36,651 bases of DNA from an uncultured Oscillospiraceae bacterium (GTDB lineage: Bacteria; Bacillota; Clostridia; Oscillospirales; Oscillospiraceae): positions 1-36,651 of the forward strand of contig CANQCS010000022.1 in assembly GCA_947589745.1 (NCBI GenBank). The letters are read 5' to 3'. Shown piece by piece: positions 30,713-36,651 of the stretch. Numbering within the stretch: the stretch's first letter is position 1; every line of letters starts with the position of its first letter. The notes below the pieces were generated by a model, which worked only from the letters and a program-made list of their open reading frames with translations, ran no database searches and had not been told where the DNA came from. Made by a program: the position numbers and the translations under genes.

Positions 30713-30812
30713 TCTTCCTTCTTTTTCTTGAAAGAAAAAGAAGCAAAAAGAACTTTTACTCTCGCTCTTGGGGCGCTGCGGGACCAAGTCCGCCGCACGG
30801 TGACGGAGTTCC
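30713..30812 (-). repeat. Small hairpin repeat, family 2, copy 2
   Basis: Inverted copy of the unit at 18328-18420: on the minus strand CTCCGTCACCGTGCGGC, a stretch ending GAGCGAGAGTAAAAGTTC, and the stem CTTCTTTTTCTT/AAGAAAAAGAAG. The outer pairs of the stem differ from copy 1 yet still pair. Lies just after the lpdA stop. Confidence 0.75.
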
Positions 30813-32771: not shown

Positions 32772-32820
32772 AATACCGCATGATCCGCGGAAACGGACCA
32801 TGCGGTATTGCTTTTGCTGT
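32772..32820 (+). terminator. Terminator after the exonuclease gene
   Basis: Arms AATACCGCATG (32772-32782) and CATGCGGTATT (32799-32809), with an inner TCCG/CGGA pairing, followed by GCTTTTGCTG. Confidence 0.65.
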
Positions 32821-32858
32821 TGTTCTTTTTGGTACTTTTTCTTTCAAGAAAAAGTATG
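32816..32858 (+). repeat. Family 2 hairpin, partial copy 3
   Basis: Only the hairpin and its TTGTTCTTTTTGG flank are kept: TACTTTTTCTT/AAGAAAAAGTA. Sits between the convergent exonuclease and ASCH-metallopeptidase genes. Confidence 0.65.
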
Positions 32859-32865
32859 CAGTGGC

Positions 32866-34977
32866 TTATTGGTACTCCGCCCAGACCACAGCGTCGGTAC
32901 CGGGCATGGTGAAGGCGGTCTCCTGGGCGGAGGCGTCCGCCGCTTCTCCGGCGGAGACGCGCCAGTGGTGGAAGCGCTTGCCGTCCCCGTCCGTCTCCGG
33001 GGCGGTGAGGGTCAGCGTCTCGCCCTTCTCCGCGAAGACGCCCCGGCTGCTGCCGTTCACCGCGCCGCCGTGGATAAAGACCGCCCTCCGGCGCAGGTCC
33101 GCCAGGCGGCAGAGCTGCCAGTAGCCGCCCCGGTCCTCCCGCAGCGTCAGGGGCGCACCCAGGGTGGGCTTGCCCTCGATGCCGAGGCACAGGCCGTCGC
33201 ACTCAATGTGCCCCCGGCCGTGGGTGCCCACCACGGACACCGTGAAGACCGAGCGCTGGTCGCCCACCGTCAGCCGGTCCCCGTCCCGGTACAGGTAGCC
33301 GCCCTTCCGGCAACGGATGTAGGCGGGGTAGACGTGCTCGAACTCGCACATCTCCTCGTTGTTCCGCACCTGGGCCGGGCGGCCCTCCACAGCCTCGAAC
33401 ACGAAGGTCACGTCCTCCGCCTCGTCGGCCATGTCGGCGGAGGCGTCGTACCACAGGCCCGCATGGCCGTCGGCGCCCTCGGCGTGGACCACCAGGCCGC
33501 TGCGGGTCAGCACTAGCTTGTAGCTCTCGTCAAAGGACAGGGCGTCCCTGCCCGCCGCCTCCTCCGGGTAGGGGAATACGTAGTTGAGCCCGGTCAGGTC
33601 CGGGTCCGGCTCGTCCGGCAGGCCCGTCACATGGACCGTGTCCGGCACCGGCGTCCAGGCCCCGTCCAGGTCCCGGTAGGGGTACAGCTTGGCGAAGAAC
33701 CGGTAGGCGTCGGGGTCGTAGTTGTAGAGCTCCCGCCGGGTGTTGATGGGCCCTCTCGTGCCGTCCCAGCCGTCGTCCTTGGCGCACTCCTTCATCACGT
33801 TGAACCAGATGGTGGAGAGGGTGGCGAAGTACTCGTCGGAGTTGGAGATGGCGTAGGTGTTGGGCCACAGCCCCGCCGCCTTGGCGTGGCGGTAGAGCAT
33901 CTGGAACTCGGTGTACAGGGACCGGTCCTCCATGCGGTCGATGCCCGCGATCTTCACGCCGTGGCCGAACTCGTGGATCAGGATGTTCTCGTTCCAGTAC
34001 CGGGTGGTGTAGTTGGGGTCGGGCCGGGTGTCGCACTCCTTGTGCCAGTGCCAGACGTTGCACTCGGTGATGCTGCACGCGGTGCCGCCGAAGCCCTCCA
34101 CGTAGAGGGCCGCTGTCTCATAGCTGCTCCGGTGCTCCGGGATGTGGAAGGCGCACTCGCCGGGGCCGTACACGGAGAGGGTGGCCCCGGACTCCACCAT
34201 CTGGGCCGCCACCTGGGGGCAGGCGGAGAGCTGGATATCCACCAGTTCCCCGGCCCGCTCCACGGTCTTCATGCCCCACATCAGGGCGGCGCTGCCCTTG
34301 ACGGTGACGCCGGACTTTGTGGTGAGGTAGTACCTGTAGTAGTCCTCGTAGGGGGCCTCCAGATCCCGGCCCTCCAGGGTGACGGTCACCGTGGGCGCGC
34401 CCTCGCCCACGGGCAGCTCCTTGTGGAGGCGGATGGTGGTCATGCGGCAGAAGTGGACGTGGCCCTTGCGGCCGTAGCGGGTCTCCAGGGCCAGGGGCTG
34501 GCCGTCCAGGGTGACGGTGTATGCCTCGGTGCCGGGCTCCTTGCCGAACTCGAAGTCCCCGTCGAAGTAGATCTCGATGTCCCGGCCGTTGATGCGGCGG
34601 GCGTGGGTGGGGTGGATCTCGTAGCCGCCCTCGTAGGGCAGCAGCTCCACGGCGCAGGCCCCCCAGCGGGCCAGGTCCTCCGCCTTGTAGTATTCCGCCA
34701 TGCCCTTGGCGAAGTCCTCCGCCGTGTCCTGCTCCCCGCAGCCCAGGGCCGCCCTGTCATAGGCGGCGAACAGGGCCTGCCAGTCCGGGAAGCGCTTCAC
34801 CGCGCCCACCCGGCGGTACAGCATCTCGTGGCGGTAGGGCAGCTTCTGGAAGATGATGAGGTCCCCGGGCCGGAGCGCCTGCCGCTTCTCGTCGAAGAGC
34901 CGTACCTCCACGGTCTTCCTGCCCTCCCGGATCAGGTCGTAGGGTTCACCCTGCAGCTTCATATAGACATTGCTCAT
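32866..34977 (-). CDS. ASCH domain-zinc metallopeptidase fusion with trefoil-like and InlB-like C-terminal regions
   Basis: 703 residues, no signal peptide or membrane segment. Residues 1-113 form an ASCH (PUA-like) domain, the type that binds RNA or nucleotides: KLQGEPYDLIREGRKTVEVRLFDEKR, then LRPGDLIIF and ARWGACAVELLP. About 150-440 is a zinc metallopeptidase-like region with HEFGH at 335-339 in NENILIHEFGHGVKI; Glu382 in SNSDEYFATLSTIWFN is a likely third metal ligand. About 477-628 resembles a beta-trefoil (ricin-type) or related carbohydrate-binding region, with repeated YKLVLTRSG, GGYLYRDGDRLTV and LCLGIEGKP. About 630-703 resembles a divergent InlB/bacterial surface repeat (GGAVNGSSRGVFAEKGETLTLTAP, FHHWRVS, FTMPGTDAVVWAEY). 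Extracellular-type modules on a cytoplasmic-type domain are odd. Start has AAGGAGG upstream. Function unknown. Confidence 0.82.
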   Translation of the reverse strand: MSNVYMKLQGEPYDLIREGRKTVEVRLFDEKRQALRPGDLIIFQKLPYRHEMLYRRVGAVKRFPDWQALFAAYDRAALGCGEQDTAEDFAKGMAEYYKAEDLARWGACAVELLPYEGGYEIHPTHARRINGRDIEIYFDGDFEFGKEPGTEAYTVTLDGQPLALETRYGRKGHVHFCRMTTIRLHKELPVGEGAPTVTVTLEGRDLEAPYEDYYRYYLTTKSGVTVKGSAALMWGMKTVERAGELVDIQLSACPQVAAQMVESGATLSVYGPGECAFHIPEHRSSYETAALYVEGFGGTACSITECNVWHWHKECDTRPDPNYTTRYWNENILIHEFGHGVKIAGIDRMEDRSLYTEFQMLYRHAKAAGLWPNTYAISNSDEYFATLSTIWFNVMKECAKDDGWDGTRGPINTRRELYNYDPDAYRFFAKLYPYRDLDGAWTPVPDTVHVTGLPDEPDPDLTGLNYVFPYPEEAAGRDALSFDESYKLVLTRSGLVVHAEGADGHAGLWYDASADMADEAEDVTFVFEAVEGRPAQVRNNEEMCEFEHVYPAYIRCRKGGYLYRDGDRLTVGDQRSVFTVSVVGTHGRGHIECDGLCLGIEGKPTLGAPLTLREDRGGYWQLCRLADLRRRAVFIHGGAVNGSSRGVFAEKGETLTLTAPETDGDGKRFHHWRVSAGEAADASAQETAFTMPGTDAVVWAEYQ

Positions 34978-35035
34978 GGATATGCCGTCCTCCTTATCGA
35001 ACAGTTGGAATGAAATGAGGGGTGCTTTCCCGGTG

Positions 35036-35112: not shown

Positions 35113-35147
35113 ATGGAAAAGCCCCGGCGCGGAAACGCGCCGGGGCT
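35113..35147 (-). terminator. Terminator of the hydrogenase gene
   Basis: 11-bp stem AGCCCCGGCGC / GCGCCGGGGCT (35120-35130/35137-35147) followed on the minus strand by TTTTCC, 22 bases after the stop codon. Confidence 0.8.
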
Positions 35148-35169: not shown

Positions 35170-36651
35170 TCACTTCTTCCGCACCGGGGCCGGGGGCATC
35201 TGCCAGGCGCCGTGGTCCGTGTGCAGCAGGTGGTGGGCCCGCTCGCCGCAGGGCTGGCCCAGATAGTCCTTGTAGAGGGTCTGGACCTCTTCGTTCTCGT
35301 GGCTGAAGCGGATCTTCTCGTGCTTGTCCATGGCCCACAGGGCGCCGCCCCGGTCCTCGGCCATCTCCACGCCGTCGGTGATGGGCTGTCCGCCGCCTCC
35401 AGCGCAGCCGCCGGGACAGGCCATGACCTCCACAAAGTCGTAGTGGACGTCGCCCCGGCGGATGGCCTCCAGCAGCTTCCGGGTCCGGCCCAGGCTGCTG
35501 ACCACCGCCACCCGGACCACGCCCGCGCCGGGGATGTTGAAGGATGCCTCCTTCCAGCCGTCCCGGTCCATGCCCCGGACCGCCCGGAAGGTGTCCGCGT
35601 TGGGGTTCCGGCCGGTGATGAGGTAATAGGCGCTGCGGAGGGCCGCGTCCATGACGCCGCCGGTGGCGCCGAAGATCACCGCCGCGCCGGTGCCGGTACC
35701 CAGGGGGCTGTCGAACTCCGCCTCCGGCAGGTCGCCGATGAGGATGTTGTCCGCCCGGACCATGCGGAGCAGCTCCCGGGTGGTGAGCACCACGTCCACG
35801 TCCGGGTCGCCGCAGGCGTCCCGCATGGGCTCCAGGGCCGCCTCCTGCTTCTTGGCCAGGCAGGGCATGATGGAGATGACGCGGACCTTGTGGGGGTCCA
35901 GCCCCAGCTTCTCCGCGAAGTAGGTCTTGGCCACCGCGCCGAACATCTGCTGGGGGGACTTGGCGGTGGAGAGATTCGCGGTGAACTCCGGGTAGTTGGA
36001 CTTGACGAACCGGACCCAGCCGGGGCAGCAGGAGGTGAACATGGGCCACTGGTACTCCTCCCGGTGGGTGAAGCGCTCCACGAACTCGCTGCCCTCCTCC
36101 ATGATGGTCAGGTCGGCGGAGAAGTTGGTGTCAAAGACGTAGTCGAAGCCGATGCGCTTCAGGGCCGACACCATCCGGCCCGTGGCGGCCGGACCGGGCT
36201 CCAGCCCCGCCGCCTCCGCCCAGGCCACCCGCACCGCCGGGGCCACCTGGACCACCGTGGTGAGGGAGGGGTCCGCCAGCATATCCATCACCGTCTCCGT
36301 GTCGTCCCGCTCCTGGAGGGCGGCGGTGGGGCAGTGGGTGATGCACTGGCCGCAGAGGGCGCAGTCCGCCTCCTTGATCTTCCGGTTCAGGCTGACGTTC
36401 ACCGTCACCCGGGAGCCGGTGCCCGCCACATCCCAGATGTGCAGGCCCTGGATCTTGTCGCAGACCTGGATGCAGCGCATACACTTGATGCACTTGGTCT
36501 CCTCCCGGAGCAGGGGGAAGTCCCGGTCCCAGATGCCCTTGCGCACGTCCAGGCGGTAGGGCATATAGAGCAGGTTGGCCTCCATGGCCACCTTCTGGAG
36601 GGAGCAGTTCCCGCTGCGGATGCAGTAGGTGCAGTGGCAGTCGTGCTGGGA
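35170..36651 (-). CDS. hydA: [FeFe] hydrogenase catalytic subunit, 5' end outside the window
   Basis: At least 493 residues; the frame is open to the right edge, so the N-terminus is missing. Visible from the edge: a His-ligated [4Fe-4S] motif H-x3-C-x2-C-x5-C (HDCHCTYCIRSGNC), two ferredoxin clusters (CIKCMRCIQVC and CALCGQCITHCPTA), then the H-cluster domain with TSCCPGW, MPCLAKKQEA and EVMACPGGCAGGGGQP. The small-subunit-like tail ends in GERAHHLLHTDH. The layout fits the NADH-coupled, multimeric group of hydrogenases, so NuoE/NuoF-like partners are expected just upstream, beyond the window. Role: hydrogen evolution or oxidation to balance NADH and ferredoxin. Confidence 0.95.
   Translation of the reverse strand, partial: SQHDCHCTYCIRSGNCSLQKVAMEANLLYMPYRLDVRKGIWDRDFPLLREETKCIKCMRCIQVCDKIQGLHIWDVAGTGSRVTVNVSLNRKIKEADCALCGQCITHCPTAALQERDDTETVMDMLADPSLTTVVQVAPAVRVAWAEAAGLEPGPAATGRMVSALKRIGFDYVFDTNFSADLTIMEEGSEFVERFTHREEYQWPMFTSCCPGWVRFVKSNYPEFTANLSTAKSPQQMFGAVAKTYFAEKLGLDPHKVRVISIMPCLAKKQEAALEPMRDACGDPDVDVVLTTRELLRMVRADNILIGDLPEAEFDSPLGTGTGAAVIFGATGGVMDAALRSAYYLITGRNPNADTFRAVRGMDRDGWKEASFNIPGAGVVRVAVVSSLGRTRKLLEAIRRGDVHYDFVEVMACPGGCAGGGGQPITDGVEMAEDRGGALWAMDKHEKIRFSHENEEVQTLYKDYLGQPCGERAHHLLHTDHGAWQMPPAPVRKK

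What the first reader, a model, noticed from the sequence alone, without database searches (positions are those of the whole stretch)
32866..34977. ASCH domain fused to a zinc metallopeptidase with surface-type C-terminal modules
One uninterrupted frame joins an N-terminal ASCH domain (1-113), a peptidase-like region with HEFGH at 335-339 and a probable Glu382 ligand, a trefoil-like region (about 477-628) and an InlB-like repeat (about 630-703). ASCH domains are cytoplasmic and RNA/nucleotide-linked; the rest is of the kind found on secreted proteins, yet no signal peptide or anchor is present. Either this is an intracellular protease guided by a PUA-like domain, or a gene fusion that lost the export signal. 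I know of no described system with this order.
Basis: partly seen in the sequence, partly recalled or inferred. Interest (0 to 1): 0.72.

Follow-up and report, generated by a model that had tools for sequence, protein, structure and literature searches.

The report
Cytosolic fusion of secreted-type zinc peptidase
Some gut bacteria carry a protein in which a zinc protease of a normally exported kind has lost its export signal and gained a small RNA/nucleotide-linked domain instead, suggesting a surface enzyme re-used inside the cell; what it cuts is unknown.

Summary
It is not an assembly join: ASCH is fused to this peptidase in seven distinct proteins, the window's and six from 11 genomes of a genus in another family. 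In a midpoint-rooted tree they lie on one side of one branch, so one origin is the simplest reading; the window's copy nests among the others, suggesting horizontal transfer. None has a signal-like N-terminus. The same peptidase occurs in proteins with signal-like N-termini, including one in the window's own genome and one in G804, which also carries the fusion. P0001's peptidase is below the Pfam ATLF cut-off but distantly related to M34/PPEP gluzincins; zinc ligands and catalytic Tyr are invariant in the 13 rows aligned. Best reading: a surface peptidase re-targeted to the cytosol by swapping its export signal for an ASCH module. Substrate and ASCH role are unknown; one homologue's ASCH lost its signature motif, which weakens a universal 'RNA-guided protease' reading. 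Structure prediction could not be run (26 'busy' replies).

The parts
32866..34977 (-). ASCH-peptidase fusion gene, 703 aa plus stop
   Evidence: Open frame; 67% identical full-length homologues; purifying selection
34989..34995 (-). Shine-Dalgarno-like AAGGAGG, 11 nt before ATG 34977, supporting a start at the ASCH domain
   Evidence: Read from the sequence
34639..34977 (-). ASCH domain, residues 1-113, with G19-x-K21-x-x-x-x-R26
   Evidence: Pfam PF04266; phrog_19935 'RNA-binding protein' 6-112, E 1.5e-16; nearest solved chain 2z0t, E 1.2e-8
34333..34635 (-). Ig-like spacer, residues 115-215, shared with exported-type relatives; no Pfam match
   Evidence: Alignment; no Pfam match at E<=1; 'Ig-like' is my reading of position and pattern
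33613..34332 (-). Metallopeptidase, residues 216-455
   Evidence: Aligned with exported-type relatives and with Rhizobium/Gemmatirosa proteins
33961..33975 (-). HEFGH, residues 335-339 (two zinc ligands and the base Glu336)
   Evidence: Sequence; H335, E336, H339 the same in all aligned rows
33853..33855 (-). Tyr375, at the place of the PPEP oxyanion-hole tyrosine
   Evidence: Same in all aligned rows; the 7-residue Tyr-Glu spacing equals Tyr190/Glu197 of PPEP-3
33832..33834 (-). Glu382, probable third zinc ligand
   Evidence: Same in all aligned rows; aligned with the EFFA/EYFA stretch of solved gluzincins
33088..33612 (-). Possibly degenerate trefoil-like region, residues 456-630; mostly absent from two of the seven fusions
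   Evidence: No Pfam match; weak profile match; mostly absent in G192 and G809
32872..33069 (-). Divergent InlB B-repeat, residues 637-702
   Evidence: Pfam PF18998 above cut-off
32772..32809 (-). Terminator-like hairpin (17 pairs) after the gene
35120..35147 (-). GC-rich inverted repeat followed by TTTTCC, terminator-like, between the hydrogenase gene (35170-36591) and this gene; suggests separate transcription
   Evidence: Read by eye; a part is listed by the scan

Best explanation
A cytosolic zinc endopeptidase that arose when the export signal of a secreted 'Ig-like spacer + gluzincin + trefoil' protein was replaced by an ASCH domain, most simply once, in a lineage of the same order; the window's genome probably acquired the gene later by horizontal transfer. 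Shown by computation: the conserved fusion, intact zinc-site signature and catalytic Tyr, no signal-like N-terminus, exported-type relatives, fusions on one side of a branch, purifying selection. Inferred: that the protein stays in the cytosol, that it is an active protease, and that the ASCH domain acts as a ligand-binding or targeting module (RNA, nucleotide or similar) positioning or regulating a protease of narrow specificity. The trefoil-like and InlB parts may be remnants of the exported ancestor, but the evidence on that is mixed.
For: Seven distinct fusion proteins (window; G261, G192, G801, G804, G805, G809). Fusions lie on one side of a branch at 100/99 support, and in 100% of 200 bootstrap trees. 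In-frame space upstream of the start I took is 4 codons in G804/G805 and 7-16 in the other four homologues (frame lengths against lengths); the window's 40 upstream residues hold no signal-like stretch. N-terminal hydropathy is -0.06 to 0.44 in seven fusions against 2.19-2.58 in four exported-type relatives. Own-genome paralogue L002 and G014 L004 have a signal-like N-terminus and, by my reading, SLH repeats (Pfam SLH matches 2 of 15 A2 rows, not named in the table) and a trefoil (L002: RicinB above cut-off); G804 L076 and G807 L075 have a signal-like N-terminus and a hydrophobic C-terminal segment. Zinc site and Tyr the same in 13 of 13 rows. G804/G805 dN/dS: peptidase 0.025, whole protein 0.101. 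ASCH is joined to varied enzymes elsewhere in these bacteria.
Against: No localisation or activity data. The ASCH end is less constrained than the peptidase (close-pair dN/dS 0.285-0.295), is only 27% identical in G801, and lacks the Lys and Arg of GxKxxxxR there. Against 'C-terminal remnants': in the close pairs the trefoil-like part is constrained (dN/dS 0.069 in G804/G805; 0.072 over 25 columns in G192/G809), and the InlB part is constrained in G192/G809 (0.106) though not in G804/G805 (0.708). My cysteine-content test of cytosolic location does not hold up: of 241 frames sampled from this genome, 90 cytosolic-type and 20 exported-type frames do not differ (P 0.13; 131 frames fell in neither class), although the fusions carry 6-7 Cys in the Ig-like+peptidase region against 2-5 in six exported-type rows. 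No conserved neighbour gene points to a substrate. The nearest precedent for an intracellular PPEP-like protein, CD1597, showed no proteolytic activity. No structure model could be obtained.
Confidence: 0.55

Rival explanations
1. Cytosolic, but the ASCH part is only a soluble leader that happened to land there; the enzyme is a general or vestigial intracellular peptidase with no RNA or nucleotide control.
For: The ASCH is degenerate in G801 (27% identity, no Lys/Arg of the motif) and less constrained than the peptidase elsewhere. ASCH shares open frames with many unrelated enzymes in these bacteria.
Against: Six of seven distinct fusions keep GxKxxxxR and the ASCH part is under purifying selection in both close pairs (dN/dS 0.285-0.295).
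Confidence: 0.2
2. A non-proteolytic or substrate-free relative (pseudo-enzyme or structural/spore protein), like C. difficile CD1597: PPEP-like, no signal peptide, extra N-terminal domain, intact HEXXH, no activity found.
For: CD1597 abstract and passages.
Against: The zinc ligands, the catalytic Glu and Tyr375 are the same in all aligned rows, and the peptidase is the most conserved part of the protein in 5 of 6 pairs compared (in the exception, G192/G809, InlB is higher).
Confidence: 0.15
3. Still works outside the cell after non-classical release or lysis; the trefoil-like and InlB parts remain functional adhesion modules.
For: The trefoil-like part is kept in 5 of 7 fusions and an InlB-like end aligns in all 7 (Pfam reaches it in 7 of the 15 A2 rows); the trefoil-like part is constrained in close pairs. 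In the L018 contig the gene lies near genes that I read as alpha-galactosidase and alpha-fucosidase (no profile run).
Against: No signal peptide or anchor by hydropathy; the trefoil-like part has the lowest identity to the window in two of four comparisons (G805, G261), ties with InlB in G192 and is above ASCH in G801, and it is mostly absent in two fusions.
Confidence: 0.1
4. Assembly or annotation artefact.
For: The window comes from a draft assembly of 252 contigs.
Against: ASCH is fused to the same peptidase in six other genomes; two of those proteins are also found in contigs L018/L019, perhaps the same assemblies. The window's neighbouring genes have same-genus matches of up to 85% (hydrogenase) and 89% (exonuclease) identity.
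Confidence: 0.01

Closest known systems
Exported-type Ig-like + gluzincin proteins (L002, L004, L022, L075, L076)
   Same: Same spacer and peptidase (36-41% identical to L002, L022, L075, L076; 32% to L004), same zinc site; RicinB_lectin_2 matches 6 of 15 A2 rows, rows not named
   Different: L002, L004, L075 and L076 have signal-like N-termini, with SLH or a C-terminal hydrophobic segment by my reading; L022 sits inside a very long frame; none has an ASCH domain in the alignment
C. difficile CD1597 (PPEP-like, paper PMC11460543)
   Same: PPEP-like catalytic domain without signal peptide, presumed intracellular, extra N-terminal domain (abstract and passages)
   Different: Its N-terminal domain is of unknown function and about half the protein; it was not compared with the window protein here; no activity was detected for it
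Pro-Pro endopeptidases (PPEP-1, -2, -3) and M34-type gluzincins (Pfam ATLF)
   Same: HExxH, Tyr and Glu ligand with the same 7-residue Tyr-Glu spacing as PPEP-3; acidic residue before the ligand (passages); weak profile matches
   Different: ATLF below cut-off; PPEPs are described as extracellular; Pro-Pro specificity untested
ASCH proteins: YqfB amidohydrolase, ZmASCH ribonuclease
   Same: Pfam ASCH, GxKxxxxR
   Different: Glu24 where YqfB has catalytic Thr24; neither is reported fused to a peptidase in the passages read
Rhizobium nodA-adjacent proteins (e.g. WP_010034735.1) and a Gemmatirosa protein
   Same: Same peptidase core PE-R, GxGG, HEFxH, EYxA
   Different: 22-29% identity; no ASCH match; hydrophobic N-terminal stretch in the Rhizobium sequences by my reading

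Membership tests
ASCH superfamily | Pfam ASCH profile above curated cut-off | tested here: met
   29.4 bits against 21.2
ASCH superfamily | GxKxxxxR motif | tested here: met
   G19, K21, R26 in the window; 6 of 7 distinct fusions; motif from a passage of PMC5615036
YqfB-type N4-acetylcytidine amidohydrolase | Lys21-Thr24-Glu74 triad | tested here: not met
   Thr24 is Glu24, mapped by the K-x-x-T-x-R register of the paper's numbering, not by an alignment; Glu74 was not mapped
Zinc gluzincin (HExxH + Glu) | HExxH, downstream Glu ligand, catalytic Tyr in sequence | tested here: met
   H335, E336, H339, Y375, E382 the same in 13 of 13 rows; zinc binding itself not tested
M34/ATLF (Pfam PF07737) | Profile above curated cut-off | tested here: not met
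   P0001: 20.1 against 27.4 bits. 15 of 15 A2 rows match at E<=0.05, best 1.3e-5; bits of the other rows are not shown
Pro-Pro endopeptidase | Cleaves Pro-Pro bonds | not testable with these tools
   No assay
Pro-Pro endopeptidase | Extracellular, exported by a signal peptide | tested here: not met
   No signal-like N-terminus by hydropathy and frame limits; location itself not measured
Ricin B beta-trefoil | Pfam trefoil profile | tested here: not met
   No match at 456-631
Ricin B beta-trefoil | Profile similarity to trefoil regions of exported-type relatives | tested here: inconclusive
   E 1.1e-4, probability 56%, 59 columns
Divergent InlB B-repeat | Pfam Flg_new_2 above cut-off | tested here: met
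   33.3 against 23.6 bits

The most novel reading that the evidence does not exclude
A cytosolic, ligand-gated protease: the ASCH domain reads an RNA modification or nucleotide signal and switches or positions a highly specific zinc endopeptidase recruited from a surface enzyme. It would be a signal-dependent proteolytic switch assembled by domain swapping, with an exported-type sister enzyme encoded in the same genome (seen here for the window's genome and G804).
Probability: 0.22. Interest if true: 0.75.

Novelty: new variant of a known kind. Interest (0 to 1): 0.5.

Why it matters
It is a clean candidate for a secreted peptidase moved into the cell by one domain swap, with an exported-type sister still encoded in the same genome in at least two cases, so the two can be compared directly. 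It also outlines a peptidase family that reached no Pfam cut-off in P0001 or in three distant members tested, present in gut bacteria of one order, Rhizobium symbiosis plasmids and Gemmatirosa. If the ASCH domain regulates it, this would be a PUA-superfamily domain controlling proteolysis rather than RNA chemistry.

Tried and rejected
Assembly join: rejected by six homologous fusions. Later or earlier start with a hidden signal peptide: rejected by short upstream frames and hydropathy. Phage, viral or plasmid origin of the fusion: no relative confirmed in viral contigs, but that scan used only two patterns, both from the ASCH end; no match in phages; only distant peptidase matches in plasmids (spacer and peptidase as query). 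Defence system: no PADLOC match at E<=0.1 for P0001 or L076. Operon clue: none found; neighbours differ between loci except V-type ATPase genes near three of four g114 loci viewed (my reading of sequences), and the two flanking genes of the window are not together in the same-genus contigs viewed. Empty site anchored on the hydrogenase: not found. Cysteine content as a marker of location: tested and dropped (P 0.13). YqfB-type catalysis: catalytic Thr absent. Literature: no ASCH-peptidase fusion was seen in the listings (8 of 8 papers; 12 of 138; 3 of 3; 8 of 5,901); these are titles and abstract starts of one held open-access library, and the PPEP phylogeny paper is not held. An earlier count said 'no Pfam model at E<=1' for the Rhizobium proteins; that is wrong, one search lists weak matches (best E 0.095, below cut-off).

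Structure prediction of the full protein with alignment A4 was requested 26 times and answered 'busy' each time; hence no fold search either. Searches failed on my wrong coordinates; 93 was repeated corrected, without one of its seven proteins; 100 was not repeated. Searches were scripts that failed on missing files; one search was an empty test script.

Full report
What is there. The minus-strand frame 34977-32866 encodes 703 aa with an AAGGAGG 11 nt upstream of the ATG. Pfam places an ASCH domain at 6-101 and an InlB B-repeat at 637-702, both above curated cut-offs, and a sub-threshold ATLF match at 330-386 around HEFGH. PHROGs adds an 'RNA-binding protein' family at 6-112. NCBIfam and PADLOC give nothing for P0001 at E<=0.1.

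Not an artefact. A genome-contig scan found two 67%-identical full-length homologues, L018 and L019, in MAGs titled 'uncultured Clostridia bacterium', isolate names Lapin-014 and Lapin-004; their proteins equal those of G805 and G804 respectively. Whole-genome searches with A1 found the fusion in the window's genome and in G261 and G192 among 394 genomes of the order, in 6 of 11 genomes of genus g114 (a seventh, G807, has only an exported-type relative), and in no genome but the window's among 391 sampled from the class. In the window's own genus, 0 of 24 other genomes shows the fusion. With the peptidase profile A3, 5 of 394 order genomes, 3 of 398 phylum genomes (one of them, G1155, matching only profile positions 3-107) and 5 of 275 genomes of the g114 family, all g114, match. 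These samples overlap and several genomes are incomplete. Thus seven distinct fusion proteins in two genera are known to me.

Origin. A tree of 13 spacer+peptidase regions puts the 7 fusions on one side of a branch (100/99; 100% of 200 bootstrap trees). The window's copy groups with G804/G805 (90/92, not starred) inside a set of six fusions without G801 (96/95). Rooting is by midpoint and long branches were flagged, so 'single origin' and 'transfer from g114 to the window's lineage' are the simplest readings, not proofs. The window contig looks native: the neighbouring hydrogenase is matched at 82-85% identity in seven of 18 same-genus genomes and at 67% in an eighth; the exonuclease gene is matched at 89% in G019 and 60-72% in the 12 other listed same-genus genomes. 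In G019 the phosphodiesterase and exonuclease genes are present without the fusion beside them.

Exported-type sisters. In the window's own genome, L002 has a signal-like N-terminus, the spacer, the peptidase and a RicinB region above cut-off, and SLH repeats by my reading. G014 (L004) has a signal-like N-terminus and, by my reading, trefoil, spacer, peptidase, trefoil and SLH. Pfam SLH matches 2 and RicinB_lectin_2 6 of the 15 A2 rows, which the table does not name. G804 (L076) and G807 (L075) have a signal-like N-terminus and a hydrophobic, basic C-terminus; G804 also has the fusion, and G805 has two contig-end fragments matching the exported type. G058 and G128 have the peptidase inside frames of 2388 and 2874 aa. 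N-terminal hydropathy maxima are -0.06 to 0.44 in the seven fusions against 2.19-2.58 in L002, L004, L075 and L076.

Peptidase. A tblastn of the spacer+peptidase against plasmids found 51 records, 50 Rhizobium and 1 Gemmatirosa, none covering 80% of the query. I examined three of the 51. Both Rhizobium genes lie near nodA. Alignment A5 keeps PE-R, GxGG, HEFxH, the Tyr and the Glu, with H335, E336, H339, Y375 and E382 the same in 13 of 13 rows. Pfam gives these three nothing above cut-off (best E 0.095, unrelated families). A5 matches lethal factor chains at 2.8e-4 to 5.7e-3, an ATLF-like chain at 4.8e-3 (another at 0.24) and a Pro-Pro endopeptidase at 0.11; unrelated chains begin at 0.39. With A3 alone the best was 0.014. 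In PPEP-3 the residues are His153, Glu154, His157, Tyr190 and Glu197 (passages of PMC12828418): the same 7-residue Tyr-Glu spacing as Y375/E382.

Constraint (Nei-Gojobori, several dS values saturated). G804 against G805: ASCH 92% identical (dN/dS 0.295), spacer 97% (0.053), peptidase 98% (0.025), trefoil-like part 95% (0.069), InlB 88% (0.708). G192 against G809: ASCH 70% (0.285), spacer 83% (0.114), peptidase 94% (0.144), the 25 remaining trefoil columns 92% (0.072), InlB 97% (0.106). Window against G805: ASCH 68%, spacer 73%, peptidase 82%, trefoil-like part 45%, InlB 60%. So the C-terminal parts diverge most over long distance, and the trefoil-like part is mostly missing in G192 and G809, yet where present it is constrained between close relatives; decay of these parts is possible, not shown. 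G801's ASCH is 27% identical to the window's and lacks the Lys and Arg of GxKxxxxR. The ASCH model is reached in 8 of 15 A2 rows, of which nine are fusions including two duplicate pairs.

ASCH elsewhere. Of ten long-frame ASCH hits scanned, out of 14 listed, eight had another Pfam domain above its cut-off in the same stop-to-stop frame: GH32, ArgJ (ASCH there just below cut-off), GNAT, patatin, GtrA, NUDIX, tRNA uracil methyltransferase, thymidylate kinase; L060 and L062 had none. Some of these frames may hold two adjacent genes.

How it most likely works. Export signal replaced by ASCH; cytosolic zinc endopeptidase; ASCH as ligand or targeting module. Only the sequence facts are shown. CD1597 of C. 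difficile (abstract and passages of PMC11460543) is the nearest published parallel that I saw: PPEP-like, no signal peptide, presumed intracellular, unexplained N-terminal domain, no activity found, detected in spores. I did not compare its sequence.

Limits. No structure model (26 busy replies), no localisation data. Cysteine content does not separate cytosolic from exported frames in this genome. The Ig-like label is mine; the name M34 and several gene names of neighbours are recalled or read by eye.

Noticed in passing
L002 (G000:C38): Exported-type paralogue in the same genome: signal-like N-terminus, RicinB region, same spacer and peptidase, SLH by my reading.
   Followed up: partly
L133:3446-4360, L134:2743-3651: Relatives of the peptidase near nodA on Rhizobium symbiosis plasmids, annotated hypothetical protein or glycoside hydrolase; the zinc-site motif argues for a metallopeptidase.
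   Followed up: partly
L030, L033, L034, L054, L055, L068, L049: ASCH in one open frame with GH32, GNAT, patatin, NUDIX, tRNA uracil methyltransferase, thymidylate kinase and GtrA domains: ASCH looks like a promiscuous fusion partner in these bacteria.
   Followed up: partly
L073: G801 fusion with a degenerate ASCH lacking the Lys and Arg of GxKxxxxR but with an intact peptidase motif.
   Followed up: partly
window 32822-32857 and about 30718-30767: Short T-rich inverted-repeat stretch that also matches places in same-genus contigs L127 and L128; looks like a repeated terminator.
   Followed up: no
L003/L022 (G058, G128): The peptidase sits inside very long frames (2388 and 2874 aa) that also hold what looks like a glycoside hydrolase; that part was not tested by profile.
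   Followed up: no
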